Shown here in pieces: positions 13,511 through 33,190 of a stretch of 64,000 nt of DNA (position 1 is the first letter of the stretch; the number at the start of each line of letters is the position of its first letter). The position numbers and the translations under genes were made by a program. The DNA comes from Pyropia haitanensis. Taxonomy: Eukaryota; Rhodophyta; Bangiophyceae; Bangiales; Bangiaceae. The notes under the pieces were generated by a model, which searched no databases, was not told the origin of the DNA, and saw nothing but the letters and a program-made list of their open reading frames with translations. The stretch covers positions 3,127,874 through 3,191,873 of the forward strand of contig SDUX01000002.1 in NCBI GenBank assembly GCA_008729055.1. Direction: 5' to 3'.

Positions 13511-13822
13511 CAACTAGTTGACAGGCGCGGCGATTAAGTAGGCCGCTCTCACGTGCGGAGGGCCGGGCCGCCGCTCCCGCTGGCTGCTGCCGTTGATTTC
13601 TCGACGGGATCTCGAGGTGAGCACGTACCTATCTCGTATATCTCGGTGGAACGCCTGTGCGCGCGGCGCCGTCGCCACGCGCCCACAGACAACAGCCGAC
13701 ACCCCTCCAGCGCGGCCGCGTCGTTTCTACATAGTTTTGTTCTTCTCCCTCCGGTGCACACAGGGAATAAGTTGTCAGTCGTTCAGAAAGGTCGACGAGA
13801 GGCATTAAACGATGAGTATGCA
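13511..13822. other. Spacer downstream of the nuclease gene
   Basis: Base composition drops here compared with the repeat block to the left. No coding signal is recognised. If the nuclease gene belongs to a transposon, its left boundary should lie in or near this stretch, but I found no inverted terminal repeat matching the other side (25,400-26,050). Confidence 0.3.
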
Positions 13823-13883
13823 CGTGGGGGGACCGGCCCCCGGGGAGAAACTCTGCGATAGCAGAGTAACCCCCCTCACACGC
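13823..13883 (-). ncRNA. Candidate guide-RNA scaffold: nested hairpins 3' of the Fanzor-like gene
   Basis: A 7-bp perfect hairpin (13850-13856 with 13861-13867, loop 13857-13860) and a second hairpin (CCGG-CCC-CCGG, about 13833-13844) are enclosed by an outer stem: a GTG plus G-run at 13823-13831 pairs with the C-run plus TCACACG at 13871-13883. The segment lies about 120-180 bases beyond the nuclease stop codon, in the orientation expected for a 3' UTR-encoded RNA. TnpB and Fanzor systems carry their guide RNA in this position. The folding is seen by eye; the guide role is inference. Confidence 0.35.
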
Positions 13884-14000
13884 AATCTGAACATCCGACG
13901 AAAACCCGCACGCGGCTCGTCGGAGAGAGGGGTGAACCGAGCTCGTGGCACTCGGCGGCCGGTGGCTATCGTGCCGTGAGTACCGCGGTGTGGAACCGAC

Positions 14001-15739
14001 TCACGCCACGGAAGTTGCCCGGCCGCCGCCCGCCACCGCTGGCGCACCGTCTCCCGTCTCTGCCGCTCTGGCGAGCTCCGTGGTTGCCACCGTGTGCGTG
14101 TCCGCCACCACCGCCGTCCGCGCCCCGCCGTCGCCATCCGGTCCGACAGCCGCCTCCCCGCCCGCGTCGCCCGTGGCGACCGCCACCACTGCGGCGCCTG
14201 GGGGACGGCCGCAGGCGCCGTCGCCAGCTCGGTCTGCGGCGGCGGCGCCCGCCGCCTCGCCGTCGTCACCGCCTCCCAGCCTCGGCCGTCGTACGCGTTG
14301 CGGGCGCATAAACGGGTGGCACGGCAGCTGCCGTATCTGCCGCAGCGCCTTCCACCCCATGTTGGCCGCCGCGTTCACGTCGCGGTTGACCAGCTGCCGC
14401 GAACACGCCCGCTCCACGCAGCGCTTGACGCCCCACACCCCCGCGGCGGCGGGGGCACGAAACACGACCCTCGCCGGGGGTGGGTGCTTGACCGCCCGCT
14501 CTGCCGCCATCTTGGCAGCCTCTGCTCGACAGGCCGCCCGTCGCGCGGCGGAGCGCACCGGCTGCGTGCGCTCCCAGCCGGCCGTCGGCGGCGCACGCGG
14601 GCGCCCCTGCCGGCCACGGCGGCCCCGCCGCCGCCCACAGATCAGGGTGCCGCGGGGTACGGGCGGCGGCGCCGCTGCCGACGCGTACACGACCGCCAGC
14701 TGCTGGCGGCAGCCGGCGCACGCCTGACTCGAGTTGTGCTCGTCTGCGTCCACCATCCAGCACAGCCGGCGGAGGTGGCGGCGGAGCCACGTGGCGCCCC
14801 CTCGGGTGGCCGCCTGCCCGACCACCACCACCACCGCCGAGCGGTTGACGACGCGGCGGAGGCGGCCACCCGTGAGCTCCCGCGCCACGGCCTCGCCCAG
14901 CCGCCGCCGTCGGATGACTTGATGCACCCGCGCCTTGCGCTGGCCGGCCGTCGCCGCGGCGCCCCACACCGCCCTGTACTGCGGCTGGCGGCGTGACTCC
15001 ATCCACTGGCGGCTGGCCGCCAGCACCGCCGCCGCGTCGCCCGTCCGCACCGTGTCGTGCGCGGCCACCACCTCGGGGGTCGTCGCCGGCGGCAGCTGGA
15101 GCGCGGCCAGCCGCTGCGCCGCCTCCCGCCGGTGCGCCGCCGCCGCCCGCGCCGTCATGCCGTTGCCTGCAGCTTCGGTGTAGCGGCCCCTGGTCAGGGT
15201 GTACACGGCGCCCGCGGGGGGGGGCGCCCGCCACCCCCGCGTCGCCCCGACCGCGTCTGCCACGCGCGCCGTCAGGCCGTCCAAGGCGGACGCAAACGCG
15301 CCGGCGGCGGCCACGTCCTGCGCCGCCGCCGCCGTCTTGCACGCCGCGAACGCGGCGCCGTCGGGCCGCCCGTGTGCCACTCGCGGCCGGACCCAGCCGG
15401 CGGCGGCCCGGCGCAGGCAGCCGAGCGCCACGTCGACGGCCGCGTGACGCGGCACCCGCCACCGGCCATTGCCGGTGGCCACCACCAGGCGCTGCGCCAC
15501 GGCCCGCAGGCGCCGCACGGCGCCGCGCCGGAGGGAGGCTGCCGGCCCCCGCGCGGTTCTCTCCGACGGCGGGCGCACCGATGGCGCCGGCGCGGCTGTC
15601 CCGCCGGCGGCGCCGCCGCGAGGCGGTCCAGTCGTGGCCGCGTTGCCGCACGGCGGCTGCCGTTTCTCTGCGCCGCCGGGGGCGGCCTTGCGCTTTCTCC
15701 ACGCCGGAGAGGGGGTGAGGGCTCCCGGCGGGGCCCCGC

Positions 15740-15782
<43 letters not shown>

Positions 15783-16509
15783 GCCTGCCGCCGCCGCTTC
15801 GGCCGGCGCCAGGGCGGCGGCGCGCCAGACGACGGCGTCTAGCGCCAGCGCCGCGCGGGTGAGCGCGTCCGCCGCCACCAGCCGCGACCGCGCCAGCCGG
15901 CGGCGGCGCACCCACGGGCGGTCGCCCCATGCCGCTGCCGTCGGCCCAGACGAGACGGCCGTCAGGACGGTGGCCTTGCCGGGGTCTGCCGACACAACGG
16001 TGAGGGTCTTGACGGCGGCGATGGGGAAGCCCTGCTTCTCCAGCTGCGTGGTGGGGCTCCCCTGCACCCGCGACTGCACCCGGCTGCCGTTGGCCTTGCG
16101 CGTCACGGCCGCCACGTCCGCGGCCTCGGCCTCGGCGGCCGTCGCCGGCCGCGACAGCGTGAAGACCACCCCCTCCCCGTTGGAGCGGAGGTCGGCGCCG
16201 GAGGTGCACCGCGCAGTTTCCAGCCCCAGGAGTCCCGCAATGGCCGCCGCCCCCCGCCGACGGACGTCCTCGTACAGCTTGCGGTGTGCGGGCCAGGCGC
16301 GCCGGATGAGCGGGCCCAGGCGTGCCTTGGTCACCGTGCCATACCCGTGCAGGGTGGCGGCCTTGCCAGGCACCAGCGAGAAGGGCTTGTCCACCACCCC
16401 CTCCGCCTGCACGTGCAGCAGGTACGGGATGTACTCTGCCCACCGGCGCGCGACCACGTGCGCCCCGCCTGTGGGGAACAGCGGTGGGGTACCCTGCACG
16501 GGCGCCGGC
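14001..16509 (-). pseudogene. Fanzor/TnpB-like RNA-guided nuclease, 3' part (RuvC and Zn-ribbon half)
   Basis: This half of the split gene carries the nuclease core. In order it shows a RuvC-I motif VVSADPGK (Asp at 15984-15986); a long Ala/Arg-rich insert; a second RuvC strand VVVVVGQAATRGG near 14805; the segment VDADEHNSSQACAGC near 14710-14757; further Cys pairs (ERACSRQL) of a zinc ribbon; and NRDVNAAANMGWKAL near 14350-14390 as RuvC-III. The DPG start, an acidic pair next to the S-x-x-C-x-x-C ribbon, and a Gly-Gln where TnpB usually has Glu fit eukaryotic Fanzor proteins, in which the catalytic Glu is relocated. I therefore favour Fanzor over a bacterial-type TnpB. The 3' end is the stop at 14001. 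There is no ATG before the DPG motif, so this half has no obvious own start. The frame is undamaged apart from the retrotransposon insertion. Confidence 0.8.
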
Positions 16510-16514
16510 TGCGC
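16510..16514. repeat. Target-site duplication TGCGC (left copy)
   Basis: These five bases precede the TG of the left LTR and recur immediately after the CA of the right LTR. A 5-bp duplication is usual for Ty3/gypsy integrases. Confidence 0.9.
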
Positions 16515-17375
16515 TGTGAGGCACCACCCACACACGGGCAGCCCTCAACGTACTGGCGCCGGTGTCAGCAACCCGTGCACCAATGAGGATGCCGGGCGCG
16601 GGGAAGGTGACGGGTGGGATGACGGTGATGGGGGTGGGGAAGAGGATGGGCGTGACGTCGGTGAGGGTCGAGGGGGTCGAAGGTAAAGGAGGTCTTTGTG
16701 TCTCTGTCTGTGGTTGTTCCCCCGAGGTCTCTCCCGGTGGCGCCCACACTCACGCATTATATACCCCCAGGGGGGCACCCAGGGTGCCCCAAAGCATGCG
16801 ATTGCCCGTCGTGCCGGTGGACGGCACCAAAGCTCTCAAAACAAAGCATGGGCTCTCAGAACAAAGCAAGGGTGGGCGTGTGCGCCCCAAGGCGCCCCAC
16901 CAGAAAGCCCCAAACGGGGGGGCGACGGTGTGCGGCGCTCGTAGCGCCGCGCGGCTGGCCCCACGCGCCATTCGACCCGAAAAGCCTCAGAGGCGTGTAA
17001 GCAGACGCCAGTCTTCGGGTCAAATATCTCCCGTGGGTCAGCAAGTCTTGTCGCTCCCATTGGTCCACGGGGAGATTGTTCCGGCTTGCTGACGCGTCAG
17101 AGATGTGGCTCGTCTTTTGGTCCGTTAGTCCGTTGATCCGTTGGAGACTGTACCCGTCGGCAGATGAGTCAGGGTAGTGTCGGTTAGCCAATCCGCGGCT
17201 CCCGTGCTGACCGTCCGTTAGTAGTAGATTATCGGACGGACACCGCGGCATGCCCCAGATTACTTTGGAGTTGATGCGTCTTGGAAGGAGTTGGCTGAGA
17301 AGGACAGGGAAGGAGAGGCCCCAGTCCTTATCCCCTAGGCTCCAGTCTTGGGGATTTAAGGGGCATATCCTTACA
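16515..17375 (-). repeat. 3' LTR of the chromovirus
   Basis: 861 bp, with TG...CA ends on the element strand. The open frames it contains translate identically to those of the other LTR. A TATATAAT box lies at 16756-16763 (minus strand), about 250 bases before the interrupted nuclease half, and points towards it. Confidence 0.95.
16756..16763 (-). promoter_or_regulatory. TATA box of the 3' LTR
   Basis: TATATAAT on the minus strand. It places U3 at roughly 17375-16780. In this copy it would drive transcription out of the element into the 3' half of the nuclease gene. Confidence 0.6.
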
Positions 17376-17386
17376 CCTCCCCCCCC
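17376..17386 (-). promoter_or_regulatory. Polypurine tract
   Basis: GGGGGGGGAGG on the element strand, between the pol stop codon and the 3' LTR. This is the expected primer for plus-strand synthesis. Confidence 0.85.
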
Positions 17387-20300
17387 TTAGGACGCGCGGC
17401 GCAGGAAAGCGTCCAACACCTCAGGTGCGTTCGCAAGGTCTTGCTTGGTCAGCCAGGAGTTCTCGCTGACGTCACAGCCTTTCCACTTGACCAGGTACTG
17501 TAGTCGTCCACGGCGCTTTCGTGACCTTATGATGGAGTCGACTTCGTACTCGACAGAACCGTCCGGAAATGCCACCGGAGGCGGAACGGGAGGAAGTCGG
17601 CCATAAGGATCAGCGCGGTACGGCTTCAGCAAGCTCGCATGAAAGGCGTTGTGAACCTTGCGATCGAGCACCGCTTGGGGAAGATCCAGGCGGAACGTCA
17701 CATCGTTGATACTCTCAGTGACGCGGTACGGTCCTGAGTACTTGGGCATCAGCTTGCGAGCGCCTTGGAAAGCATCTGGCATAAGGTGTTTGGTACTTAG
17801 TAGCACCAGATCGTCCACGGCGATCTTGCAAGGTCGGCGATGGCGATTTGCGTACGCCGAGCGCGCCTCATTTGCACTCTTGATGGCTGAGATGGCAGTC
17901 TCTTGAGCATGTTGGAGACCGCTTAGCCAGTCAGACACTGCAGGCATGCTTGACTCTGAGTTTTCGAGGATGTCCATTGGTACCGTCTTAGGTTCGAATC
18001 CGTAGTTCAGGAAGAAAGGGGAGTACGTTGTAACAGCATTTGGCGACCGGTTGTAGGCTACTTCTGCAGCAACCAGAAAGAGGTCCCAATCGCCTTGGTG
18101 ATGGTTGACAAAGTTTCGCAGGATTTCTTCGATCTTCTTGTTCATGATCTCAGTTTGTCCGTCGGTTTGCGGGTGGTACGCTGAAGAGGCCTTGATCTTG
18201 ACCTTGAGAATCTCCGTGAGCGACTGCCAGAAGTTGGAGAAGAAAATGCGGTCCCTGTCGCAGACAACATCAGCTGGGAGTCCGTGGTGTCGATAGACGT
18301 GATCATGGTAGAGCTGAGCTGCGACTGGCGCCGTACAGTCTGGCTTCATAGGGGCGAGGCGAATCATCTTGGAGAGGCGGTCGACAACGACGTAAATCCC
18401 GTTGTGGCCTCTTGGAGTCAGAGGAAGAGGCGTGATAAAGTCCATGGAGACACTTGCCCATCGTTGGCTCGGGGGGTCCAAGGGTTTGAGGTGACCCAGA
18501 GGTGAATGGGTGCTAGCCTTGTTCCGCTGGCACAAATCACATGTTTGTACGTATCTTTGGATGTCTTTCCGCATTGTCTTCCAGTAGTACTTGGAAGAGA
18601 TAACCTTGGTTGTTTTCTTGACTCCCATGTGCCCTTGGCACGGGACATCATGGTAGTCGTGGAGTAGTCTTTGGCGTAGAGTACCGACGGGGATACACGT
18701 ACGGTCACCTCGTTTCAACAACCTCATGTGTAGCCGGTAGGGAGATACCGGGTCTTTGACTAGGTCGGCAAACTCGGGGTCCGCGTCGTACTCTTGTCTT
18801 AAGGTGGCAAGGTCTTGATCACTTTGGTTGATGGTCATGAGGTTGTTGATTTCAGTTTTCTTGGGGAATTCTTCAATGGTCTTGGTCAGCACGCGACTAA
18901 GAAGGTCTTGATTGGGGGCGTGCTTGTCGGGAGCATCTTGTGGCTGCCTGGAAAGGGCATCAGCCACGGGGTTCGAAGTGCCCTTGATTGGGACAATCTT
19001 GAACTGGAACTGGTCCAGAAACTCCAGCCACTTGACTTGGCGATCGTTCAGCTTCTCTTGGGTGCTTAGGTATCTCAGGGACTCATGGTCGGTGTGGACC
19101 TCAAAGGGTCTTCCGTAGAGGTAGCAGCGCCAATGCCGGATAGCTTGTACGACTGCAAGCAGTTCTCTTTCACGAATGCTGTAGCGCTGCTCGTGGATGT
19201 TGAGGGTTAACGAGAAGTACGCCACTGGACGCCGTCCGCGTCCATCATCTTGCTCAAGGACTGCGCCCACAGCATACCCGCTGGCATCTGTAGACACGTA
19301 GATTGGGTATCTCTTGTCGAAAGGCCTTAGCACCGGTGCGCTCGTCGTTAGGTCCTGCAGCTGCTCAAAGGCTTTCTGGGCGTCGGGTGTCCACTCGAAG
19401 TCGACATTCCCAGTCAGCCTTGTTAGCGGCGTAGCTACGGCAGCCATTCCCTTGATGAATCTACGATAGAAGTTGACCATACCGAGGAAAGATTGTACAT
19501 CCTTTTTGCTCCTTGGTGTTGCCCACGTACGGATGGCTTGGACCTTGTAGTCTTCCATAGAGAAGCCTTTCTCGGAGATGACGTGGCCAAGGTAGTCCAC
19601 AGTAGTTCGAGCGAACTGGCACTTGCTCAGCTTGGCGTAGAGCTTGTGTTCTCGTAATTTCTCGAGTGCTAATCGTAGGTGCTTGAGGTGATCGTCGTAA
19701 GTTTCGCTGTAGACTAGGATGTCGTCGAGGTAGACACAGATGAAGTCGTACAGATAGGGTCGGAAGACATCGTTCATTAGGTTCATGAAGACCGCGGGTG
19801 CATTTGTCAGACCAAAGGGTACGACGGTGAACTCATAGAATCCGTACTTGGTTCGAAACGCCGTCAAAGGTATTGTTTCTGGGTCAAGGCGAATCTGGTG
19901 ATAGCCAGAGCGGAGGTCGATCTTTGTAAAGTACTTGGCCTTTCGCAGTTGGTCAAAGATGTCGTCGATGCGTGGTAGTGGGTACGCGTTCTTGATAGTA
20001 GCCTTGTTCAGGGCCCTGTAGTCGATGCACATTCGCCAGCCACCGTCCTTCTTCGCCGCAAAGAGGACGGAAGAGCCCCACGGTGAGGTGCTTGGTTGGA
20101 TGAATCCCTTCCTTATGAGGCCGGCCAGTTGAGTCTTGAGTTCTTCGAGCTCCCATTCGGCTAGTCGGTAAATTCCGCTACGACGCGGTTGGGCGTCATC
20201 GGTCAGCTTGATGCTAAATTTGTGACTGCGCTCAGGAGGGAGTCCGTCGGGGAGCTCGTCTGGGAAGACGTCAGCGTACTCTTTGAGAATCTCTTGAACT

Positions 20301-20919
20301 TCTTTCTTGTCTTCGCCTTGTCCCATCGTAATGGCGTTAATGTCGAAGGTGCTAGAGGGATCTTCCGACTGCAGGTAGATGGCAAAAACAGGGCACCTTT
20401 GAACGAGGTCCCGAGCAAGGCGTTGCCGACTGATCAGAGCTTCGGGCTTCTTGAGGGAGGCAGTGCTAGAAATGTTCTTGTGGTTGAACTTGAAGGAGAT
20501 CTTGTTTTTCTTGTTGTTGATTTTGGCGTCCTTGTCATCGCGCCACTTCTTTCCCAGGATGAGGTCGTACGCGCTCAATTCACAAACAGCAAACCGAAGT
20601 CGCTCTTGGTACGGTCCGATGTGAATCTCAAGAGGGTCAACGGTTTCAGCGAGGACATGGGAGCGGCCATCGGGCATGCTTGCCGCGAAGTCCGTTCCTT
20701 TCGTTTTCACATGCAAGGAGGTAACGAGGCGCCTTGAGACGACGTTGATGGGAGATCCGTCGTCGAACAGCACCTTAACAACTTTTCCATTGACAGAAGC
20801 AGTAGAAAGCAGAAGCCCGAGTCGCGGGCCTTCAAATGGTGACGACATATTTTCAGGAACCGAAGGAGCGTCTTTCACAGATGTTGAGGATTGTTGCTGC
20901 TTCAGTTCCGCTGGCCTTT
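17387..20919 (-). CDS. pol: Pol polyprotein with C-terminal chromodomain
   Basis: Residues are numbered from the GTG codon at 20878. An aspartic protease is marked by DDGS (39-42; the first position of the usual DTG triad motif is followed by Asp, not Thr) and by LILGKKW. Reverse transcriptase has MCIDYRALN (283-291), [21 protein letters not shown] and the active-site YLDD (383-386). RNase H has STDASG (529-534), RERELLAV and TDHES. Integrase has an HHCC zinc domain ending CDLCQRNK, then a catalytic triad in MDFI (D813), CDRD (D874) and GQTE (E910). After the GPY-type stretch the tail holds a chromodomain ([23 protein letters not shown]). This domain order defines chromoviruses, whose chromodomain steers integration to particular chromatin. 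Pol has no ATG of its own and lies in the -1 frame relative to gag; the open frame reaches back to the slippery site at 20917-20923. The stop is at 17387. Confidence 0.96.
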
Positions 20920-21780
20920 TGGGCAGTCCTTAGCCATGTGTCCTTTCTCGCGACAGCGAAGGCAGAGACCCTCGCGCATGCAGCGCTGGCGTTCGTCTGG
21001 CGTCAGCTTTTCGATCTTGATGCTGGAAATGTCCATCGGGACAACGCCCATCGTCTGCGGCTTGCCAGAAGTGCTGTTAACATTGCTGGTGATACGGGAC
21101 ACTCCAGCCTTGGCCGCTTCCACGCGCAGGGCGTCCGTCATCAGTGATTCAAGATCGGTGTACGTCTTGAGGCACAGTGCCTGCCAGATGTCGCGCTTCA
21201 GGCCTCGGCTATAGCGGTCGATCTTTTCCGCTTCGGTGATGTCCGGGATGTCCAAGAGGACGCTCAGGAAAGTCCTGTTGAACGTCCCGACGTCCTTGAT
21301 TTGGCGCCATGAGTGCAGCTTGTCCCGCGCCGCCTGCGTCTTGTTCAGAGGGCTGAAGCGACGGATGAGCGCAGCCCGAAAGGTAGCCCAGTCGGGGACC
21401 GCCGTCGTCCGACTGTAGGTATGCCACCAGGTGAACGCTTCACCGTCCAGGTAGGTGCAGGCGATCCGACACGCTTCGTCAGGGTCAGTCAGTCGCACAT
21501 ATGAGTCCATGTGCGAGCACCATGCTTCAATTGTCCCGGGCTTGCCAGAGAACAGCGCGGGCTTATTCGGCCTCGCAGTCGTCGCGCCTCCACTCGAGGC
21601 CTTAGCCTTGGCGTCGGACAGCTGTTTCTTGGCGTCCGCCAATTCAACCTTATGAGCCTCGAGCTCGGCGCTCATCTGCGAGACGAACGCTGTAAGTTGA
21701 TTCCATGACTCCGCGGAGGGTGCGGTTGAGGCCGTTCCCGGATTAATCGGGCTTACAGTCGCAGGATTCGGGGGGTCCAT
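20902..21780 (-). CDS. gag: Gag protein with zinc knuckle
   Basis: From ATG 21780 (MDPPNPATV) this 292-residue protein forms the particle that packages element RNA. An N-terminal coiled-coil-like segment ([20 protein letters not shown], with heptad spacing) precedes the capsid domain: [41 protein letters not shown]. The C-terminus carries one CCHC knuckle, [14 protein letters not shown], for RNA binding. The frame stays open upstream of the ATG but without another good start. The stop is at 20902, just past the slippery heptamer that could extend translation into pol. Confidence 0.93.
20917..20923 (-). promoter_or_regulatory. Candidate -1 ribosomal frameshift site
   Basis: On the element strand the sequence reads C CCA AAA in gag codon phase, a canonical X XXY YYZ heptamer. 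It is four codons before the gag stop. After a -1 slip the frame is open directly into pol. Confidence 0.7.
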
Positions 21781-22144
21781 TGCGTCCTGGGTGAGGTCCG
21801 CAACAATCAAATTAACCCAACAGACCCGGTTTGACTTACTCCGGCAGAGCACGGGGCAAGTCTTACAAGATGTGCAAGTTAATTTGACCAAGCAAAATAG
21901 TGCTGCACTAGCTCTGGACAAGCGTGGCCGTCGTGGCTACCACGTTTCCAAAGATGGACAACACTATTTGATGGGTCACAAGCGATGCGATGAAGCAGAA
22001 TTCGAAGACTCAAATCACGCAATCGGATTTTCCCGCCGGCCGCCGCGCACGGGCCCGAGTCGGGTCGTGCCGGATTTCCACGCGGGGGGATCAAAGGGGG
22101 AAAATCGCGTCTCTTGCACAGATCCTGGGGGGTGTTGCGAGGTG

Positions 22145-22892
22145 TCAGTCGGTGCGGCGCGCCAGCGTGCGGTGGTGATCCTTGCCACGCTGGTGGCGTT
22201 CGAAGTGCTCGACCGTCTCAAATTCGCGATCGCACACGTCGCAACGAGGGCGGGTCGCTGGACGGTTGACCGTATTGCGGTGGCGCCGCGACCAGCGATG
22301 GTCGCGCAGCACTGTCAGGCTGTTGCAACGCACACCGCACGGCTTGCAAACGTATTTGCCCTTGGGGATGGTCTTGGCGATCCGGCGCTGCTCTCGCTGC
22401 TCTGCTGCGCGCGCGGTCGTCGGTCGGATGTGGCCGATTCGTGGGGCCGGCGGCGCGATGTAGCGCCGGGCCGGATCCTGCGCGGGCAGCAGCAGGCGCC
22501 GGTTGGCTGGGACCGCCGGTCCTGACGTGGCCGGGCCCTTACCCTTGCGCGAGAGGGGGGGCTTGGATGCGGCTGGCGCCGCCGATGCGGCCGTCGCCGC
22601 CACAGAGGATGACGTGGATGCGCCCGCCGGGGTGCCACGTGCCGCCGCGGTGTCGCGCGCCGCCACGGTGCCGCGCGCCGCCGGGGTGCCGCGCGCCGTC
22701 GGGGGGCGCGCCGTCGCCGCCGAGGAAGTCGGGGCGTCCGCCAACGCCGAGGAAGAAAATTCCGAACCTGATTTGGCACTCACTGGGTTTCGACAATCAG
22801 TCGACCAAAAGAAAAAAAACCGTGACAGGGGCCACCAGGGCAGTGTCAGGGCAGTGTTCTTTCGGTGTGATTCGTGGAACCCGCTGCGTTCG
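22145..22892 (-). CDS. Extra ORF upstream of gag: double C2H2 (U1-like) zinc-finger protein
   Basis: Between the 5' LTR and gag, in the same orientation, a frame open from 22892 to its stop at 22145 encodes an Ala/Thr/Pro-rich N-terminal half followed by a basic segment. Two zinc fingers of the CX2CX12HX5H type follow: YVCKPCGVRCNSL...H...H and PRCDVCDREFETV...H...H. This spacing is typical of U1-like/matrin-type fingers that bind RNA or double-stranded RNA. There is no in-frame ATG, so translation would need a non-AUG start (a GTG at 22783 is one option) or a spliced leader. The composition of the first half resembles host genes, not gag-pol. I infer a captured host sequence; its role in the element is unknown. 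Confidence 0.65.
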
Positions 22893-23002
22893 TATTACAA
22901 TGCCCGAGGCACGCCGAACACAGGGGGCAGCACGAGTGCACAAACACAGGGAGGGCCAAATCCAGGACGGAATCGCAACGTCACCGCCAAGAGGAAGTCA
23001 AA

Positions 23003-23018
23003 CTACCTGAAGCTACCA
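23003..23018 (-). promoter_or_regulatory. Primer-binding site
   Basis: TGGTAGCTTCAGGTAG on the element strand starts two bases after the 5' LTR, as expected for a site complementary to a tRNA 3' end. I could not assign the tRNA. Confidence 0.65.
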
Positions 23019-23020
23019 CA

Positions 23021-23881
23021 TGTGAGGCACCACCCACACACGGGCAGCCCTCAACGTACTGGCGCCGGTGTCAGCAACCCGTGCACCAATGAGGATGCCG
23101 GGCGCGGGGAAGGTGACGGGTGGGATGACGGTGATGGGGGTGGGGAAGAGGATGGGCGTGACGTCGGTGAGGGTCGAGGGGGTCGAAGGTAAAGGAGGTC
23201 TTTGTGTCTCTGTCTGTGGTTGTTCCCCCGAGGTCTCTCCCGGTGGCGCCCACACTCACGCATTATATACCCCCAGGGGGGCACCCAGGGTGCCCCAAAG
23301 CATGCGATTGCCCGTCGTGCCGGTGGACGGCACCAAAGCTCTCAAAACAAAGCATGGGCTCTCAGAACAAAGCAAGGGTGGGCGTGTGCGCCCCAAGGCG
23401 CCCCACCAGAAAGCCCCAAACGGGGGGGCGACGGTGTGCGGCGCTCGTAGCGCCGCGCGGCTGGCCCCACGCGCCATTCGACCCGAAAAGCCTCAGAGGC
23501 GTGTAAGCAGACGCCAGTCTTCGGGTCAAATATCTCCCGTGGGTCAGCAAGTCTTGTCGCTCCCATTGGTCCACGGGGAGATTGTTCCGGCTTGCTGACG
23601 CGTCAGAGATGTGGCTCGTCTTTTGGTCCGTTAGTCCGTTGATCCGTTGGAGACTGTACCCGTCGGCAGATGAGTCAGGGTAGTGTCGGTTAGCCAATCC
23701 GCGGCTCCCGTGCTGACCGTCCGTTAGTAGTAGATTATCGGACGGACACCGCGGCATGCCCCAGATTACTTTGGAGTTGATGCGTCTTGGAAGGAGTTGG
23801 CTGAGAAGGACAGGGAAGGAGAGGCCCCAGTCCTTATCCCCTAGGCTCCAGTCTTGGGGATTTAAGGGGCATATCCTTACA
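23021..23881 (-). repeat. 5' LTR of the chromovirus
   Basis: 861 bp and apparently identical to the 3' LTR at 16515-17375. Its TATA box is at 23262-23269 (minus strand). The nuclease's first half reads in frame into this LTR and stops inside it at 23362. Confidence 0.95.
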
Positions 23882-23886
23882 TGCGC
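23882..23886. repeat. Target-site duplication TGCGC (right copy)
   Basis: Matches 16510-16514 and directly follows the terminal CA of the right LTR. Confidence 0.9.
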
Positions 23887-25341
23887 CCGCACCCGCGCGT
23901 CGGCAATCTCCCTGAGCGCCGCCGCACGCACGTCGGGGGGTAGGGCGTCCAGCTTGGCCGCGTGCGCCGCGTGGGGCGCGTCGCTCCCCCGCTCCAGGCA
24001 GCTCCTTGCGGCGGCGTAGACCGCGGCGCGGCGCCGTCCGCGTTGCTCTTCGCCAGAGGCGGGGGCGTCGGCCGCATCCACCACCATTGTGGCCACCCGC
24101 CACGCCAGCCGCCGGGTGGCGACCGCCACCGTCCTCGCCGTGTGGGTGACGATGATGGTCACCACCCCTCGCCACCGCGCGTGGCTGTTGCCGTGCGGCA
24201 GGTGGTCGTGGCACGCGGCGTCAAAGGAAGACGCGAGCGCGTCCATGGCGTTACGCGTGGCGTCCATCAAGGCCGGGTAGGACACCGACAGCCGACGCGC
24301 AGCAGGCCCGCACAACGTGTTGTCCCGCGCCCGCCCGCAGCTGCCGCACTTCACGCCGGCGGGCAGGCTGCCGCCATGTGCGCCACGGCAGCAGACCGCG
24401 TACGCCACCCAGTTCCAGTACTCGCCCCAGCCGGCGGGGCCGGGCAGCGCCGCCGCCCACCCGTCCGCCTTGACGGCGCCAAAGAGGGTGTGCACGGTGT
24501 TGAGCCACACCAGCGTCAGCGTGAAGTGCAGCTGCGTGTGGTGCTCGGCGGTGGCGAGGAAGCCGCCGCGCACGACGGCGTGCGCCGTTCCGTCGGGGCT
24601 CGCGGGCAGGGTGCGCAGGACCGCCGCGACGGGCACCATCACCGACGACGTGCCCGTCGCCCGGCAGGCGTACGGGTCGGACGCGGCGGGGTCCTCCCCG
24701 CGGTCGTACGCGTGCGGGTTCTTGTCGCCGCCCACCGCCGTGGCCGGGCACGTCGCCGCCCCCGTCTTGTGAGACCGCTGGCGGCAGCGGGCGCAGGGGC
24801 GGCCGCCGGGCGCCGCCCCGCGGCGGTCCTCCACCTCTGCCACGCGCCGCGCCATGCCGCGGGAGGTGCTCCCAATCAGGGACGCCGCCCGCCGCGCCCG
24901 CTGCGCCAAAAGGCCGTCGTCGTCCAACGGGTGGTGCGCGTCCACCCACGCGGTCGCGCCCGCCACCGCCGGGGTGGTGGCCGCCTCCAGGGCGGCGCCC
25001 GACGCCGCCACCGCGCCGTCGGTGGTGGGCGAGGCTTCGTGGGGCGCCCCGGCTGCGGCGGCCGCCGCCGCCGTCATTCTGGCGAGGGCCGCGTCCAGCG
25101 CGGCGCCGTCGGGCAGCTGCGGGCGCCGCGCCCGCGCCTCGCCCATGCGGCGCAGCAGCCCGCGGAGGCGCCCCTGCTTGAGGTGCACGGCGGCCTCCAG
25201 CTCGGCCACCTCCCGCGGGTCGGCGTCGTCGCCCGACGCGGCGCCATCTCCGGGCGGGAGGGCGTCGTCGGCGTCTGCGCCGTGTCCGTGCGGTCCTTCG
25301 TCTTGAGGGCCGGCGCCCGGCTCCTCCTCGTCCGGCTCCAT
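23882..25341 (-). pseudogene. Fanzor-like nuclease, 5' part (N-terminal half)
   Basis: From ATG 25341 (MEPDEEEPG) this 486-codon stretch is the N-terminal region of the split nuclease. It begins acidic, then shows a helical Ala/Arg region, a Cys/His cluster (CARCRQRSHKTGAATC), a conserved-looking central segment (EHHTQLHFTLTLVWL, WGEYWNWVAYAVCC) with further Cys pairs (CGSCGRARDNTLC), and HARWRGVVTIIVTHTART. I assign it to the same gene as 14001-16509 on four points: same strand, frame continuity across the element once one TGCGC copy is removed (1,460 + 2,509 bases, a multiple of three), no other damage, and a single final stop. Family proteins have variable N-termini, so this half alone would not be diagnostic. 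As it stands, translation continues about 170 codons into the LTR, which would give a nuclease-dead N-terminal fragment. Confidence 0.75.
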
Positions 25342-25452
25342 TGCAAGCGCCGCGGACGTCGGGAGCCGGTGGGGGGGACGCGTGCTCCTTGGCACGGTCT
25401 GGTGCTGCCGTCCCAGTGGTGGCGGGGGGCGGGGACGGCAGGGAGCGGCCCC

Positions 25453-25462
25453 GCTTATATGG
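25453..25462 (-). promoter_or_regulatory. Candidate TATA box of the Fanzor-like gene
   Basis: CATATAAGC on the minus strand lies about 115 bases upstream of ATG 25341, in an otherwise GC-rich region. The distance suits a eukaryotic core promoter. Confidence 0.5.
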
Positions 25463-26046
25463 GGGCGCCAGGCGTCGGGGGGGAGCCCCCCGCGCGGGCT
25501 CAGCGGGCGGACTTGCTACGCGCCGGGCGCGGCAGTATCTGGGGATCTCATCCACCCCGCGGCATCCGCATTTTGCGTGGAAGGGGAGGGGGGGGGGGGG
25601 GTGGCCTGTGCGTGCGCCACGTGGACCTGAGGCGGGGGGGCCGCGGGAGGGGGGGTTGAAGAGGGGGGGGGGGGGGGGGGGGGGGTCTGGTGAGCGGCGT
25701 CACCCTGGCGACGTGCGCAACACAAGGAACACCGGCGACGTCGGGAGCTCAAGGAGATCTGTCGGCGAGGTCGTCCGTCAGATGTCCGGGCGGGGGCGGT
25801 CAACGTAATTCACGCCTTCCGACCGGCGTCTGGGTGGGGATCAGCGTCACAAATTTTACGCGAGGCTGCAAGTGCTGCCGTGCTGGCGGTCGCGGCGGCC
25901 GCCAAGAGCGGCGCCGGCGCCGGCAACGGCGGCAACGGGGTCGGCGGCGACGGCAACGGGCGCGGCGGCGGCGCCGACGGCGCCGGCGACGAATAAGGCG
26001 GCACAGCTTGTATTAAATTACGGACGACTTACTTTTGTGCGATCCA
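25463..26046. other. Spacer upstream of the Fanzor-like gene
   Basis: It contains G runs (25586-25602, 25663-25685) and GGC-rich triplets (25890-25990), then turns abruptly less GC-rich at about 26000. No gene is seen. Confidence 0.4.
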
Positions 26047-26155
26047 ATTACTCGGACTTACTTGAGTAGTACTACTCGATCTGGGCCATCGACGTCCGCG
26101 TGATTCGCAGTAGTACTACTGCGAACGTCGCACGACCCACACGATGTTGTTGATC
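26047..26155 (+). repeat. 109-bp palindrome-bearing repeat, copy A
   Basis: It holds two perfect palindromes sharing the core AGTAGTACTACT: 14 bp at 26064-26077 and 22 bp at 26104-26125. It is nearly identical to copy B, with about four substitutions. Confidence 0.9.
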
Positions 26156-26277
26156 TCAGGACGTTGCCAGCATGCGAGCACGGCCAGAAGGGCTCCCCAT
26201 GTCATATCCCGCACTGCAGTCGCTGTGTGCCGCTTTCATTCGTATAGTTACGTGGGAAGTTATTATTCTACAGCGCG

Positions 26278-26386
26278 ATTACTCGGACTTACTTGAGTAG
26301 TGCTACTCGATCTGGGCCATCGACGTCCGCGTGACTCGCAGTAGTACTACTGCGAATGTCGCACGACCCGCACGATGTTGTTGATC
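26278..26386 (+). repeat. 109-bp palindrome-bearing repeat, copy B
   Basis: Direct repeat of copy A, 231 bp downstream. The long palindrome is kept (20 bp, 26336-26355). The short one has a single change at its centre (26295-26308). Confidence 0.9.
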
Positions 26387-26760
26387 GCACATCGTTGCGC
26401 GTACGCGACCTCGCCGCCTCCGGCCGTGCCGCCACAATCGGCCGCCAGGCCGCCCTCGGCGGCCGCGGCGGCCGCGCCGTCGGCGGCGGTGGGCAACCCG
26501 GCAACGACGGCGGCTGCCGCGGTGGGCGGGGGGGGGGGAAGCCAGCTGGCGGCGGTGGCGGCTGCGGCGTGCCTGGGCTGTGAGGGCACGGGCGGGGGTT
26601 GGGGGGTGGGTGGGTAGGGACGCCGCCGATGCGACGCGGGAGGTGTGGACCGCGCGGGGTGCGCCGCCTCCCCCGCGCCGCCGCCGCGGGTGGCCAGCAT
26701 CCCCACCCTCACAGCCCCCGACGCGGGCGCTTCCCCCCCCCCCCCCTCCCCAGCTGAAAA
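26387..26760. other. GC-rich spacer between repeat families
   Basis: A host-like GC-rich, Ala/Pro-coding segment is inserted between the palindromic repeats and the 450-bp block. No recognisable gene. Confidence 0.4.
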
Positions 26761-26762
26761 CG

Positions 26763-27215
26763 CCAAAACTTGGTCAGGGCAAGTCGATGGTGCCCATCCA
26801 CTGGGGAAGCAAGAAAATCGGTGTGCAAAGGTCTGGAACGCCCGTTATGGCACCGTAAAGGCGTATACCCCCGTTTTTGGCACCTATACGGGCCTTGCGT
26901 TGCCGCATGATGTCCGATGCTGATCGGACCTGGCATGGAGGTCCGTACAGGTCACGTGCAGAGGGTACAGGCATCAGATCCGGAAACGGACACGATCCCG
27001 AGTCACTGTGGGTGGAGATATACCGCAAATGGGCCATATTGACGCTTCCACGCCAAGTACTGGACGAGGTGATAACCGTTCGACACGGGAGTGCGTGCAT
27101 CGGACGCGCCGTTGGACGAGGATAATTTGATGTCCAGAAAATTTGACTTGGGACGTGTCTTTGAGGCCTAATAGAGCGACTTTTCCTCTATTTCCCTTAA
27201 ATTAAGGGTTTTTAG
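26763..27215 (+). repeat. ~450-bp repeat block, copy 1
   Basis: This block is near-identical to 28742-29194 (offset 1,979 bp) and leads directly into a TTAGG-like array in both places. A 108-codon minus-strand frame (27098-26774) is open in both copies but differs at many residues, so I treat it as non-coding. Confidence 0.9.
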
Positions 27216-28390
27216 GGCCATTAAGGGGTCATTAGGGTGCATTAGGGCCGCATTAAGGGTGGGTTAAGGCGACTAAGGGTGGGTTAAGGGTGGGTTAGGT
27301 GAAATGAATGTGGTATGAGGAGCATTAGGGAGGATCAAGAGCCCATTAGGCCTCGTTTTAAGGGCAATTTCACGATTAAGTGCCTGTTTAGCGTCATTAA
27401 GGCCTCATTAGGGCCTCATTAGGCCACTTAGGGGAGGGTTAAGTAAAAGTTAAGGTGATTAGGGGTATATTAGGGAGATTAGGGGATGGTTAGGTGGGTT
27501 AAGGGTGGGTTAGGCGTGGGTTAAGGTCGATTAGGTGAAATGAATGTGGTATAAGGATCACTAAGGAGGATCAGAGGCCGATTAGGGCTCACTTTAAGTC
27601 CAAATACGCAACTAAGTGCGCCTTTAAGGCCATTAAGGCCCGATTAGGGCCACATTAGGCCACTTAGGGGGTGATTAGGCTTAACTTTAAGACATTAGGG
27701 GCACATTAGGGAGATTAGGGAGTGGTTAGGTGGGTTAAGGGTGGGTTAGGCGTGGGTTAAGGTCGATTAGGTGAAATGAATGGTGTATAAGGATCACTAA
27801 GGAGGATCAGAGGCCGATTAGGGCGCATTATAAGTCCAAATCCACAACTAAGTGCACGTTTAGGCTCATTAAGGCCCCATTTGGGCCACATTAGGCCACT
27901 TAGGGGGAGATTTGGTTAAAGTTAAGGTGATTAGGGGTACATTAGGGTGATTAGGGGATGGTTAGGTGGGTTAAGGGTGGGTTAGGCGTGGGTTAAGGTC
28001 GATTAGGTGAAATGAATGTGGTATAAGGATCACTAGGGAGGATCAAGAGCCCATTAAGGCTAATCTTAAGTCGTTTTCCTGGTTTAAGTGGGACTTGGAC
28101 CGTGTTAAGTCTGCATTAGGGGTCATTAGAGGTGGGTTAGGCTGAACTTAAGGTGATTAGGAAAATATTAGGCTGGGTTAAGGTGACTTAGGCCGCATTA
28201 GGCGTCATTAGGGGTGCATTAGGCGAAATAAAAAAATATGAACGTGGTATAAGGATCACTAGGGAGGATCAAGAGCCTATTAGGCCTAATATTAGGCTTA
28301 TTAGGGGGACTTAGCCGTAATATGGGCGACTTAACCCGACTTGCGCGCGTACTAAGGCCCATTCGGGGGTTTTTAGGGTAGAATTAGACG
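27190..28390 (+). repeat. Degenerate TTAGG/TTAAGG array with 236-bp higher-order unit
   Basis: Motifs TTAGG, TTAAGG, TTAGGG and ATTAGGG occur every 6-15 bases on the plus strand over 1.2 kb. A higher-order unit anchored on GAAATGAATG starts at 27301, 27537, 27773 and 28009 (exactly 236 bp apart); a fifth, diverged anchor follows at 28225. It resembles eroded telomeric or subtelomeric satellite. Confidence 0.9.
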
Positions 28391-28741
28391 TTCGAGACAC
28401 TCCTGAGGTCATTTCTCGAGCTCTACAACCTCATAGACCCCTCCCAGCACCTCCCACAGTCGTTCCCGCAGCGTGGCACTTGGCCACCTGCGCGGAAAGG
28501 CCCTCCTAGGGGGGTTCTGGAGGGGGTCCCCAGGGACCCCCAAACGACCGGGGGACCGGTCCAACCGGGGTTTCCGCCATCGTGCATCCCACTGAGGAGC
28601 CCTCCATCGATTTTGTCGAACCCGACTTGATGGGTTGTACGCATGCGCCACTTGACGCTCAGCTGTCTGCCTGTCTTCTGCAATAAGACACCACAAGGCA
28701 CCATGTCGGGGCTCAGGAGTGACCATTTTACAATATTCGAA
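28391..28741. other. Unique spacer inside the repeat block
   Basis: No gene is recognised. It contains a self-complementary stretch near 28500-28560 (runs of GGGG and CCCC). It separates the first TTAGG array from the second 450-bp block. Confidence 0.4.
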
Positions 28742-29194
28742 CCAAAACTTGGTCAGGGCAAGTCGATGGTGCGCATCCACTGGGGAAGCAAGAAAATCGG
28801 TGTGCAAAGGTCTGGAACGCCCGTTATGGCACCGTAAAGACGTGTACCCCCGATTTTGGCACTTGTACGGGCCTTACGTTGCCGCATGATGTCCGATGCT
28901 GACCGGACCTGGCATGAAGGTCCGTCAACGTCATGCGCAGAAGGTGCAGGCATCAGATCCGGAAACGGACACGATCCCGAGTCACTGTGGGTGGAGATGT
29001 CCCGCAAACGGGCCAAATCGACGCTTGCACGCCAAGTACTAGAGGTCATGATAACCGTTCGACACGGGAGTGCGTGCATCACACGCGCCGTTGAACGAGG
29101 ATAATTTGATGTGCAGAAAATTTGACTTGGAACGTGTTTTTAAGCACTTTTAGAGCGACTTTTCCGCTTTTTTCCTGAAATTAAGGGTTATTAG
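28742..29194 (+). repeat. ~450-bp repeat block, copy 2
   Basis: Diverged duplicate of 26763-27215. With the following array it forms a second composite unit of about 2 kb. Confidence 0.9.
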
Positions 29195-29690
29195 GCCGTT
29201 TAAGGGGTGGTTAATGAAACTTAGGGAGGGGTTAAGGTTGCTAAGGCCACTTAGGGCCGTTTAGGGGGTGGTTAGGGCCACTTAGGGGTGGGTTAATGAA
29301 AATTAGTGGGGGGTTAAGGTTGCTAAGGGCACTTAGGGCGAGTTAGGGCGGGTTAAGGGGTGGTTAGGGCCACTTAGGGGTGGGTTAATGAAAATTAGTG
29401 GGGGGTTAAGGTTGCTAAGGGCACTTAGGGCGAGTTAGGGCGGGTTAAGGGGTGGTTAGGGCCACTTAGGGGTGGGTTAATGAAAATTAGTGGGGGGTTA
29501 AGGTTGCTAAGGGCACTTAGGGCGAGTTAGGGGGTGGTTAAGGGCACTTAGGGGTGGTTAGGGTGAGTTAAGCGTCACTTAGGGCCCCATTAAGCGCATT
29601 AGGCGTGATTAGCAGGCGGTTAAGGCTCATTAGGGCTCTGAAGACTCGTTTTAGGCTGAAAATGTGCGTATTAAGGGTCGATTCTGAGGA
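29180..29690 (+). repeat. Second TTAGG-like array with 92-bp unit
   Basis: A unit anchored on GGTGGGTTAATGAAAATTAG begins at 29287, 29379 and 29471, 92 bp apart, with the copies nearly identical. The motifs are the same as in the first array but the higher-order unit differs. Confidence 0.9.
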
Positions 29691-29761
29691 AGTTAGGGTT
29701 GCGGAACACGGTGAAGCCATTTATGAGACGCTCAGAGGCCGCCAAGCAACGGGAATGCACA

Positions 29762-30391
29762 ATGTCGAGGGCTGTATGTATCTGTGTTAGTCCCCGTGTA
29801 CGCGCCTTAACAGCGGCGGCGCTGCTCGAGGCCACCGCCCGGTCGCTGCGGGCGGTGGATGGGGTGGCGGCGGTGGCGGCGGCGGTGGCGGCGGCGGCGG
29901 CCGCCGCCGCCGCTGCTGCCGCGCCGCCGTTGGCGGTGGGTGGAGGGGGCGGGGGGGGGGGGGAGCGTGCCGGCGCGGTCGGCTTTGTCGGCGGCGCGGG
30001 GGGGCGCGGCCGCGGCGGCGGTGTGGGTGGCGGCGGTGGGGAGGGGGGGGGGGGCGCGACCAGGGTAATGCCAGGGGTGGCGCTTGGGGACCGGGTGGCC
30101 GCGGCGGGGGGGGTGGAGGTGGGGGCGGCGGCGGTGGGGGGGGGGGGGTTGCCCCTGCTGCTGGTGGGTATGGTGGCGGCGGTGTCGGCGGTGGTGGTGG
30201 CGCCGCCGCCGCCGGCGTTGCGGCCACGTACGCCGACGCGCTGGCGGTCTTTGACGTCTACGCCGAGGCGGCGGTGGTGATCGCCCGCGCGGGCGGCGCG
30301 GCCGTCCTCGTCCGCCTCGTCGAGGCGGTCGACGTGGCCGCGCCGCCGCGGCCGATCCCGTGCGGCTGGAGGGATGGCGGCGGGGGGCGGC

Positions 30392-30423
<32 letters not shown>

Positions 30424-31192
30424 AGTGGCGGCGGGGAGTCGGCCGAGGTGGCGGCGGCGGCGGCGGCGGTGGCGGCGCCGCGGGCGGCAGCGACGTCGGT
30501 GGCTGCGTGTGGCCGCCCGCGACGGCAGACACGGCCGCTGCGCTCGCGCTCGCGGCCGGAGCGGCGCTCGCGGCGCTCGCCCCCGCCCCCCACCTCGGTC
30601 CCGCCGTCGCCGCGGCGGTCGCGCCCGCCGCGGCCGGCGGCGTCGACCTCCCGCTGCTGCTGGCGGAGCTCGCGACGGCACCGCCGTCGCGGCCGACGCG
30701 CAGCGGGGGGGGGGGGCGGCGGCGCAGCCGGCGGCGGCGGCGGCGGCGCCACTGGGGGGGGGGGGGTTGGGCGCGCTTGCTACAGCCGCGGATGGGCTTC
30801 GGCGGGTGGTCGCGACGTATGGGGGAGTGGGGGGGGACGGTGCGCGGGGTGGGGGTGGACGGGGGGGGGGGTCGGCCGTCGGGGGGGGGGCTGGGTCTCC
30901 GCTGGAGGCTTCGCGTGTCGGGGACGCGCCGCCCGCGGGGGTGGTTGCCGCCGCGGGCGGCGGCCTGCTCTTCTCCCCGGCCACTGCCGGCACGCGCGGT
31001 GCCACCGCGGCCGCCGCCGTTGACGCCTTTTCCTCTACCGTCGCCGCCGCTGCGGATGGCGGCCAGAGCGGCCGCGGCGGCCGCGGCGGTGGCTCCGACG
31101 ATGTCGCCGCCGCCGCCGCCGCTGTCGACGCGGCCGGCGGCGGCGGCGGCGACGCGGCCGGCGGCGGCGGCGGCGACGCGCGGCCGCCGCCC

Positions 31193-31224
<32 letters not shown>

Positions 31225-31333
31225 TGCGGCGGCGCTGCCGGCGCCCGTCGCGACGGCGCGCGCGCAGCTGCGCGCGCTGCGCGCGCACTGCCGGTTTGAC
31301 TCGCAGTTCTTGTTGTACGAGAGCGCGCTGTGA
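29762..31333 (+). CDS. Ala-rich protein, unrecognised, frame interrupted
   Basis: A coding stretch seems to begin at ATG 29762, right after the TTAGG array (MSRAVCICVSPRVRALTAAA, then LEATARSLRAVDGVA). It continues in different frames: TYADALAVFDVYAEAAVVIA near 30228 (frame 1), TADTAAALALAAGAALAALA near 30520 (frame 3), and LGALATAADGLRRVVATYGG near 30770 (frame 2). It ends with a convincing C-terminus, ARAQLRALRAHCRFDSQFLL, before the TGA at 31331. The non-repetitive helical pieces all read on the plus strand, and long G runs lie between them, so frame errors in homopolymers are the simplest explanation. The helical character recalls vesicle-tethering subunits such as COG proteins, but I cannot establish that. 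Treat the exact limits as approximate. Confidence 0.45.
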
Positions 31334-31706
31334 GAAGCGGGGGGGGGGGGTGGAGTGGGAATGGGGAGGGGGACAGGGCGGCAGCTGTGGGGAGTGTGGG
31401 GTGGGGGGGGGGCTGGGGATGGGGGCTGGGGGTACTGGGAGGCGAGGATGGGGAGGGTGGGGGGGACCAGTCGGGGACGTAGGGGGGCGGCGGCCATGCT
31501 CTCGTTCTACTTCTTTGCCCAAGCGGGTACCGGGGGAGAAGGGGCAGCCCACGCCTCTTGCGTCGCGGGGCGGCATCGTCCGCAGCGGCACGGGGGTGCC
31601 TAGCGGCGGGCGAGACCGTGAGGGGGTGGGGCGGGAGCGGCCGCCGGCCGCCGAGGCCGGCGCGCCCCCCCCGCGCCCCCCCGCCCCTCCCGCGCCCCCC
31701 CCCACC

Positions 31707-32917: not shown

Positions 32918-32951
<34 letters not shown>

Positions 32952-33190
32952 GGACCGGAGGTGGCTCCCCCCGTCCGCCACCGCTGCCGCCACCGCCGCG
33001 TCCACCGCATCCCCACCAACGACGGCAGCGGCGGTGGTGGCGGCGGCGGCGGTGGTGGCGGCGGCCCAGGCGGTGGCGTCGGCGCCCACGGCGGCGGCGG
33101 GGGCGGCGGGACGGGCGGCAGCGGCGGCAGCGCAAACGCGGTGGCGTTAGCGTGCACGCCAGGTGAGGGGGCAGAGGTGGACGAGGGCAT
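31707..33190 (-). CDS. Predicted membrane protein with coiled coil, three exons, unrecognised
   Basis: The last two exons are well supported. A GTACGT donor at 32758 ends an exon coding EEAAEADAEAYKR; the next exon runs 32421-32232 (TDAMEAAAAA, RRADRYAALLGVAVGNAAAA, VLVFRFTYVDPRAP, GFDAALWG); another GTACGT donor joins to 31864-31707 (VTHCEPRVPALPALAARF, DVDVAAFLLAVRAAFIAA) and TGA. Both junctions preserve frame. Upstream, an Ala/Glu/Arg coiled-coil-like stretch (LLAAMRAAEAEELRAVREGR) precedes the first intron. The start is less clear: ATG 33190 or 33211 opens a Pro-rich N-terminus that must shift frame near 33090, through error or another intron. One hydrophobic segment (ALLGVAVGNAAAAAVLVF) suggests a single membrane span. 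The shape loosely recalls inner-mitochondrial-membrane coiled-coil proteins, but I see no diagnostic motif. Confidence 0.55.

What the first reader, a model, noticed from the sequence alone, without database searches (positions are those of the whole stretch)
14001..25341. Fanzor-like RNA-guided nuclease gene split by a chromovirus with the frame otherwise intact
Two minus-strand open frames flank the element. One has the N-terminal Cys/His region; the other has RuvC motifs (SADPGK, NRDVNAAAN) and a zinc ribbon. Both end exactly at the TGCGC duplication. Subtracting the element and one TGCGC leaves 3,969 bases, a multiple of three, with a single final stop and a TATA-like box upstream. So the gene was intact until a very recent insertion, and other copies in this genome or in sister strains may still be active. 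The long Ala-rich inserts inside RuvC are unusual.
Basis: partly seen in the sequence, partly recalled or inferred. Interest (0 to 1): 0.9.

Follow-up and report, generated by a model that had tools for sequence, protein, structure and literature searches.

The report
Giant Fanzor element split by retrotransposon
A retrotransposon with identical ends has cut one copy of a repeated mobile DNA element whose uninterrupted sister copies are predicted to make an unusually large RNA-guided DNA-cutting enzyme (a Fanzor), and the element ends in a conserved stretch that likely folds into that enzyme's guide RNA.

Summary
A 7,367-bp Ty3/chromovirus element (16515-23881; LTRs 861/861 identical; TGCGC duplication) interrupts a minus-strand gene of 1,322 codons. 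Nine near-identical copies lie elsewhere in the genome: six uninterrupted, one frame-broken, two cut by the same retroelement. The gene belongs to a larger mobile element (13814-33390 here; about 9.7 kb in another copy) with a fixed 3' end and no transposase found.

Pfam sees the protein only below cut-off, but the published Fanzor fingerprint (DPG in RuvC-I; a glutamate six residues before the zinc-finger cysteines) is present in 6 of 6 homologues. It is about twice the usual Fanzor1 size because of inserts.

Expression, cleavage, target motif and transposition mode are untested; both structure predictions failed; one published motif spacing is exceeded. Verdict: a new, recently multiplied giant variant of Fanzor1-type systems.

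The parts
13814..33390 (-). Whole mobile element copy (family A), 5' end TAATCTACC at 33390, 3' end ...GTGCATACTC at 13814, with two nested insertions
   Evidence: 3' end shared by 10 genomic places and 5' end shared by this and five other places; flanks differ
23887..25341 (-). Fanzor-type gene, codons 1-485 (N-terminal half)
   Evidence: 37 matches in own genome, ten of them 100%
14001..16514 (-). Fanzor-type gene, codons 486-1322 plus stop (WED-like motif, RuvC, zinc finger)
   Evidence: intact in six other copies
24748..24795 (-). N-terminal Cys/His cluster CARCRQRSHKTGAATC
   Evidence: conserved between families A and B
16161..16184 (-). SNGEGVVF, counterpart of the Fanzor1 WED 'TDG' motif
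15978..15992 (-). RuvC-I SADPG (DPG fingerprint)
15700..15812 (-). Ala-rich insert between RuvC-I and RuvC-II
   Evidence: low conservation A versus B
14709..14741 (-). Alternative RuvC-II glutamate and first zinc-finger pair, EHNSSQACAGC
14379..14420 (-). Second zinc-finger pair and RuvC-III aspartate, CVERACSRQLVNRD
13814..14012 (-). Likely omegaRNA scaffold, from nine bases before the stop codon to the element's 3' end
   Evidence: covariation; fold; covariance-model match (window is in its training set)
13794..13813 (-). Putative guide: 3' flank, unique to this copy
   Evidence: 10 of 10 family-A 3' flanks differ; guide role inferred from PMC10432273
25453..25460 (-). TATA-like box ATATAAGC
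16510..16514 (.). Target site duplication TGCGC, left
23882..23886 (.). Target site duplication TGCGC, right
16515..23881 (-). Ty3/chromovirus LTR retrotransposon (pol 17387-20878, gag 20902-21921, zinc-finger frame 22145-22783)
26766..29812 (.). Second nested insertion, absent from copies L028 and L029, carrying TTAGGG-like repeats

Best explanation
The window holds one copy of a multi-copy mobile element that encodes a predicted 1,322-residue Fanzor1-type RNA-guided nuclease and ends in a likely guide-RNA scaffold, and this copy is interrupted by a Ty3 chromovirus retrotransposon. Shown: the interruption, the duplication, ten near-identical gene copies, the fixed 3' end with differing flanks, the Fanzor residue fingerprint, and compensatory base changes in the 3' segment. 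Inferred: an RNA starting near the stop codon runs through the element's 3' end into the flank; its last helix closes within 5 bases of the element's end, so the first flank bases would serve as guide. In an intact copy the nuclease would bind this RNA and cut DNA matching the flank, that is, the unoccupied site on a sister or homologous chromosome, next to a motif on the element's left side; repair from the occupied chromosome would copy the element back. Movement to new sites would use an activity supplied elsewhere, possibly rolling-circle. The window copy cannot make the whole protein, but its RNA segment is intact and could be used by protein from other copies.
For: Gene structure and TSD; copies and intact frames; DPG and Ealt in 6 of 6, NRD and C-x4-C in 5 of 6 (P0006 ends before them); this pair of features is described as the molecular fingerprint of Fanzors (PMC10711439); 35% relative P0010 reaches PF07282 at E 7e-4; A-B divergence dN 0.46, dS 1.0 over 1,258 codons; RNA: 48 pairs in six representatives, 92.3% of cells paired, 14 pairs with changes on both sides, 0 of 500 shuffles reach this, slid controls 36-53% paired; 23 of 50 changed paired cells are G-U, which fits RNA better than DNA; family-A fold z -2.85; 10 of 10 flanks differ. 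omegaRNA with 3' flank as guide is established for SpuFz1, GtFz1 and others (PMC10432273).
Against: No PDB sequence match; PF07282 below cut-off everywhere, and no PF07282 match in the genome at E 0.001. D-to-[TS][TS] spacing (417 residues) exceeds the 125-275 of PMC3627910. AlphaFold2 failed (pLDDT 36 and 41). Exact TDG in only 2 of 6. Single-sequence folds of shorter pieces from four other representatives are weak (z -2.18, -1.33, -0.68, -1.70). Among near-identical A copies nonsynonymous codon changes equal or outnumber synonymous ones (for example 4 to 1, 6 to 2), so recent constraint is not shown. No expression data.
Confidence: 0.75

Rival explanations
1. The conserved 3' structure is a DNA hairpin or terminator needed for transposition (as in Helitron ends), not a guide RNA, although the protein is a Fanzor relative.
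For: Helitron2 elements with Fanzor1 in Chlamydomonas have 3' hairpins, 5' truncation and intact 3' ends (PMC3627910); L021 here is truncated 65 bp upstream of the ATG.
Against: The fold spans about 199 nt with several helices, starts at the stop codon, and tolerates many G-U pairs (41 of 263 paired cells).
Confidence: 0.15
2. The protein is a RuvC/zinc-ribbon protein of the wider TnpB/Cas12 superfamily but outside the Fanzor clade, convergent on DPG and the glutamate position.
For: Profile scores below cut-off; spacing outside the published range (positions).
Against: PMC10711439 reports the DPG plus Ealt combination in under 1% of TnpB homologues; here it is invariant in 6 of 6, together with a TDG/TNG/SNG site.
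Confidence: 0.08
3. A dead or dying family: the copies spread recently but the nuclease is no longer functional and frames survive by chance in GC-rich DNA.
For: Four of ten copies are broken (window, L023, L027, L028); nonsynonymous changes equal or exceed synonymous ones among A copies.
Against: Six full-length frames; dN/dS about 0.46 between A and B; catalytic positions kept in all homologues that reach them.
Confidence: 0.12
4. The split is an assembly artefact.
For: Repeats of this kind can be misassembled; no reads were available.
Against: Exact 5-bp duplication, identical LTRs and the same retroelement at two other positions in two other copies.
Confidence: 0.03

Closest known systems
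Fanzor1 of Chlamydomonas reinhardtii CRe-1, 2, 3 (Helitron2-type elements; PMC3627910)
   Same: Fanzor in a eukaryotic mobile element with an intact 3' end, 5'-truncated copies, captured or variable 5' sequence, no duplication in full-length copies
   Different: There: 5 or 10 exons, insertion after TTTT, duplications around truncated copies. Here: a single open frame, no TTTT at six 5' ends, no duplication at the truncated copy L021, no Rep/helicase found
SpuFz1, GtFz1 and PpFz1 (PMC10432273, PMC11423790)
   Same: D-E-D RuvC with zinc finger between E and the last D; omegaRNA with 3' flank as guide
   Different: Most Fz1 are 600-700 residues; here 1,322-1,393 for the intact A and B proteins. 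D to E is 410-449 residues here against 158 in SpuFz1 (D383, E541). PpFz1 has only about 100 extra residues in RuvC
Fanzor element of Auxenochlorella (PMC12636532)
   Same: Multi-copy uncharacterised element encoding a Fanzor in a unicellular alga
   Different: Only a passage was seen; no sequence comparison was possible
IS607 and IS200/IS605 TnpB
   Same: Element-end RNA scaffold with flank as guide; zinc finger and RuvC
   Different: No TnpA or serine recombinase found beside it; DPG and Ealt are Fanzor-side features

Membership tests
Fanzor (Fanzor1) | DPG in RuvC-I (PMC10711439) | tested here: met
   6 of 6 proteins
Fanzor (Fanzor1) | Alternative glutamate six residues upstream of the zinc finger (PMC10711439) | tested here: met
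   6 of 6: E-six residues-C-x2-C
Fanzor (Fanzor1) | C4 zinc finger followed by RuvC-III RD | tested here: met
   5 of 6 (P0006 ends before it); the two Cys pairs lie 96 residues apart in family A, unusually far
Fanzor (Fanzor1) | Spacing D-X(125,275)-[TS][TS] of the 2013 motif (PMC3627910) | tested here: not met
   D662 to S1080 in P0004 leaves 417 residues; DPG-to-glutamate distances of 410-449 put the other full homologues over 275 too. Order of the motif is kept; I therefore call it Fanzor1-type variant, not a canonical member
Fanzor (Fanzor1) | TDG motif in the WED domain (PMC10711439) | tested here: inconclusive
   TDG 2 of 6, TNG 3 of 6, SNG 1 of 6
Fanzor (Fanzor1) | Curated profile PF07282 over its cut-off | tested here: not met
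   best 20.2 of 26.3 bits, in P0010; 13.6 for the window half
Fanzor (Fanzor1) | RuvC/WED/REC fold | tested here: inconclusive
   pLDDT 36 and 41 with five sequences; no fold search was run on them
Fanzor (Fanzor1) | omegaRNA at the element's 3' end | tested here: met
   covariation and end position only; expression not testable
Fanzor (Fanzor1) | RNA-guided DNA cleavage | not testable with these tools
   needs bench work
Helitron2 carrier element | Intact 3' ends with 5' truncation | tested here: met
   L021 truncated, 3' end intact; 10 family-A 3' ends
Helitron2 carrier element | Hairpins at both ends | tested here: inconclusive
   5' hairpin predicted in 4 of 5 fetched 5' ends, lost in L042 and in the window copy
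Helitron2 carrier element | Insertion after TTTT | tested here: not met
   none of six 5' flanks ends in TTTT
Helitron2 carrier element | RepHel protein in the genome | not tested
   PF14214 search did not complete
Ty3 chromovirus | Identical LTRs, short TSD, gag, RT, RNase H, integrase, chromodomain | tested here: met
   (integrase core PF00665 is under its cut-off; zinc-binding H2C2 and chromodomain are over theirs)

The most novel reading that the evidence does not exclude
A giant Fanzor1 lineage that carries no transposase and keeps and spreads itself by RNA-guided cutting of unoccupied sites, each copy re-aiming the enzyme with its own 3' flank, with the large RuvC and zinc-finger insertions as new functional domains; broken copies such as this one remain as guide-RNA donors.
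Probability: 0.2. Interest if true: 0.85.

Novelty: new variant of a known kind. Interest (0 to 1): 0.6.

Why it matters
Fanzors were found recently as programmable nucleases of eukaryotes, and their role in the life of mobile elements is still open. Here one genome holds many near-identical copies with different flanks, intact and broken, plus related families with the same 3' RNA, so guide choice, homing and the need for a carrier transposase can be tested in one organism. The proteins escape the standard Pfam cut-off, so similar giants may be overlooked. It is still a variant of a described system, not a new principle.

Tried and rejected
Profile searches with Pfam and NCBIfam gave no match over a cut-off for the Fanzor halves. 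Solved-structure sequence searches gave none at E up to 10. The viral-contig scan matched 25 short patterns, none confirmed (it is limited to two peptide patterns). Rfam gave one chance match, a microRNA family on the other strand far below its gathering score. Two AlphaFold2 jobs failed in confidence and were not used for fold searches; the second model's strand-Glu / helix-Asp order resembles RuvC but at pLDDT 41 I give it no weight. Pfam scans of open frames in the 5' part of the element (7 frames, 9 frames from L022, L024, L028) found no transposase; spliced genes could be missed. Terminal inverted repeats were looked for by eye only. A 7-base match (ATCGTTT) between the window copy's 3' flank and a place 19 bases left of its 5' end may be a duplication or chance; not relied on. 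One DNA search was aimed wrongly at the flank of L037; it shows only that this flank is single-copy. A B-family syn/nonsyn count was out of frame and was replaced (27.5 synonymous, 30.5 nonsynonymous; pS 0.023, pN 0.010). Whole-genome searches with the C-terminal half never worked. Host species was not determined.
Full report
What is there. On the minus strand, codons 1-485 of a gene run from 25341 to 23887 and codons 486-1322 from 16514 to 14001. Between them sits 16515-23881, bounded by TGCGC at 16510-16514 and 23882-23886. The two LTRs are identical over 861 bp, and the joined frame has 3,969 nt with one final stop. Pfam finds reverse transcriptase, RNase H, integrase zinc-binding domain, gag and a chromodomain.

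Copies. The N-terminal half finds 37 matches in the genome: ten at 100%, the rest at 37-53%. Of the nine other family-A copies, L021, L022, L024, L025, L026 and L029 have an uninterrupted frame of 1,322 or 1,323 codons, L028 has a broken frame, and L023 and L027 are cut by the same retroelement at other positions. A second family (B; L032-L038 and L040 were compared, mostly 96-99% alike in DNA) has a 1,393-residue protein 50% identical to A. Related proteins outside this genome are few: 5 hits, one of them likely this same protein (P0009, 100%), the others 35-68% identical; two further searches added nothing new.

The element. The gene is part of a larger mobile unit. Its 3' end is the same base (window 13814) at ten places, and the ten 3' flanks all differ. 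Its 5' end was found by searching window 29813-40000: five other places begin at the same point, and reading them shows a start TAATCT(A/T)CCC at window 33390. The L028 copy spans about 9.7 kb. In the window, 26766-29812 is a second insertion relative to L028 and L029. The 5' parts vary in a modular way between copies, and L021 starts only 65 bp before its ATG. No target duplication was found in full-length copies except one doubtful 7-base match in the window copy. No transposase was recognised.

The protein. Library profiles hardly see it: PF07282 at E 0.08 for the window half, 20.2 bits (cut-off 26.3) for the relative P0010, and no PF07282 match in the genome at E 0.001. Residue-level features decide. 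PMC10711439 (sections 23, 25 and 28 read) names DPG in RuvC-I plus a glutamate six residues before the zinc finger as the fingerprint of Fanzors, found in under 1% of TnpB homologues. Here DPG (D662) and E1077-HNSSQA-C1084 are present, and in all 6 proteins tested; the NRD of RuvC-III and the second Cys pair are in 5 of 6, the sixth (P0006) having a different ending. PMC11423790 (passages) gives D383, E541 and D606 for SpuFz1 and 600-700 residues for most Fz1; here D-to-E is 410-449 and E-to-D 120-133 residues. The older motif of PMC3627910 (passages and one section) allows 125-275 residues between D and [TS][TS]; ours has 417, so that spacing is not met. Between A and B dN is 0.46 and dS 1.0 over 1,258 codons. 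Within the near-identical A copies, however, nonsynonymous codon changes equal or outnumber synonymous ones, so recent selection is not shown.

The RNA. From nine bases before the stop codon (14012) to the last base of the element (13814) the sequence is conserved across families whose proteins are only half identical. Divergent 3' ends were found at 3 further places with A, and 26 places matched the B end. An alignment of 12 gave 54 pairs, 16 with changes on both sides: 95.1% of cells paired, and 0 of 500 shuffles as high on four of five measures, 3 of 500 on the fifth. Because most of those 12 rows are close relatives, I repeated it with six representatives: 48 pairs, 14 with two-sided changes, 92.3% paired, again 0 of 500 on four measures and 3 of 500 on the fifth, against 36-53% for slid controls. 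The closing helix lies near the element's end in every representative folded: columns 130-138 with 190-197 of 202. G-U pairs make up 41 of 263 paired cells and 23 of 50 changed ones, which suits RNA. Thermodynamics alone is mixed: the window segment has z -2.85 with 3 of 200 shuffles as stable, B has -3.59, but four shorter pieces of other representatives have only -2.18 to -0.68. Rfam holds no such family.

How it likely works. In characterised Fanzors the omegaRNA is encoded at the gene's 3' side and the sequence beyond it is the guide (PMC10432273, passages); PMC10711439 adds that Fanzor1 scaffolds end in a double-stranded stem. The same layout is seen here: gene, folded segment, element end, unique flank. 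I infer that intact copies would make a nuclease aimed at their own unoccupied site, and that this favours retention and copying of the element. The fixed 3' end, the 5' truncation and the lack of duplications recall the Helitron2 carriers of Chlamydomonas Fanzor1, but insertion after TTTT is not seen and RepHel could not be searched, so I do not file the carrier as Helitron2.

The split copy. It cannot make the whole protein, yet its 3' RNA segment is untouched. Three of ten family-A copies are cut by the same retroelement inside the gene, and it also lies in or next to B copies L034 and L035. Whether this is targeting or chance is open, because the genome-wide copy number of the retroelement was not measured.

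Place among known things. Fanzors in algae are known, including Chlamydomonas and, from a passage, the most abundant repeat of Auxenochlorella (PMC12636532). In the listings of three searches of the held library (the first listed 30 of 82 papers) I saw no paper describing a Fanzor of this size, but most of those papers were seen as listings only. I rate it a new variant of a known kind.

Noticed in passing
window 16515-23881; L023, L027, L034, L035: The same chromovirus sits inside the gene in 3 of 10 family-A copies and in or beside two family-B loci, in both orientations. Could be targeting of these elements or chance; its total copy number was not measured.
   Followed up: partly
window 22145-22783 (minus): Between the 5' LTR and gag the retroelement carries an open frame with two C2H2-type zinc fingers (zf-C2H2_jaz E 1.1e-8, zf-met 2e-7), an unusual extra for a Ty3 element as far as I recall.
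   Followed up: no
window 26766-29812: Second nested insertion, about 55% GC in an otherwise GC-rich element, with 236-bp period repeats rich in TTAGGG-like motifs and 300-bp direct repeats (26763-27062, 28742-29041, 92%).
   Followed up: partly
L046, L047, L051-L062: Further divergent 3' ends with the same RNA fold, 75-86% alike in DNA; whether they belong to Fanzor genes or are stand-alone guide-RNA loci was not examined.
   Followed up: partly
L031, L039: A third protein family whose last 1.6 kb is about 85-88% identical to family B while the rest differs, suggesting exchange of the 3' end between families.
   Followed up: no
L041, L043, L044, L045 (5' ends): A 7-bp hairpin is predicted within the first 26 bases of the element's 5' end; it is missing in L042 and in the window copy through a small internal deletion.
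   Followed up: partly
window 29671-33265: The 5' part of the element has long open frames but no Pfam match; one stretch reads like a short membrane-type exon, possibly captured host sequence. This is an impression by eye.
   Followed up: no
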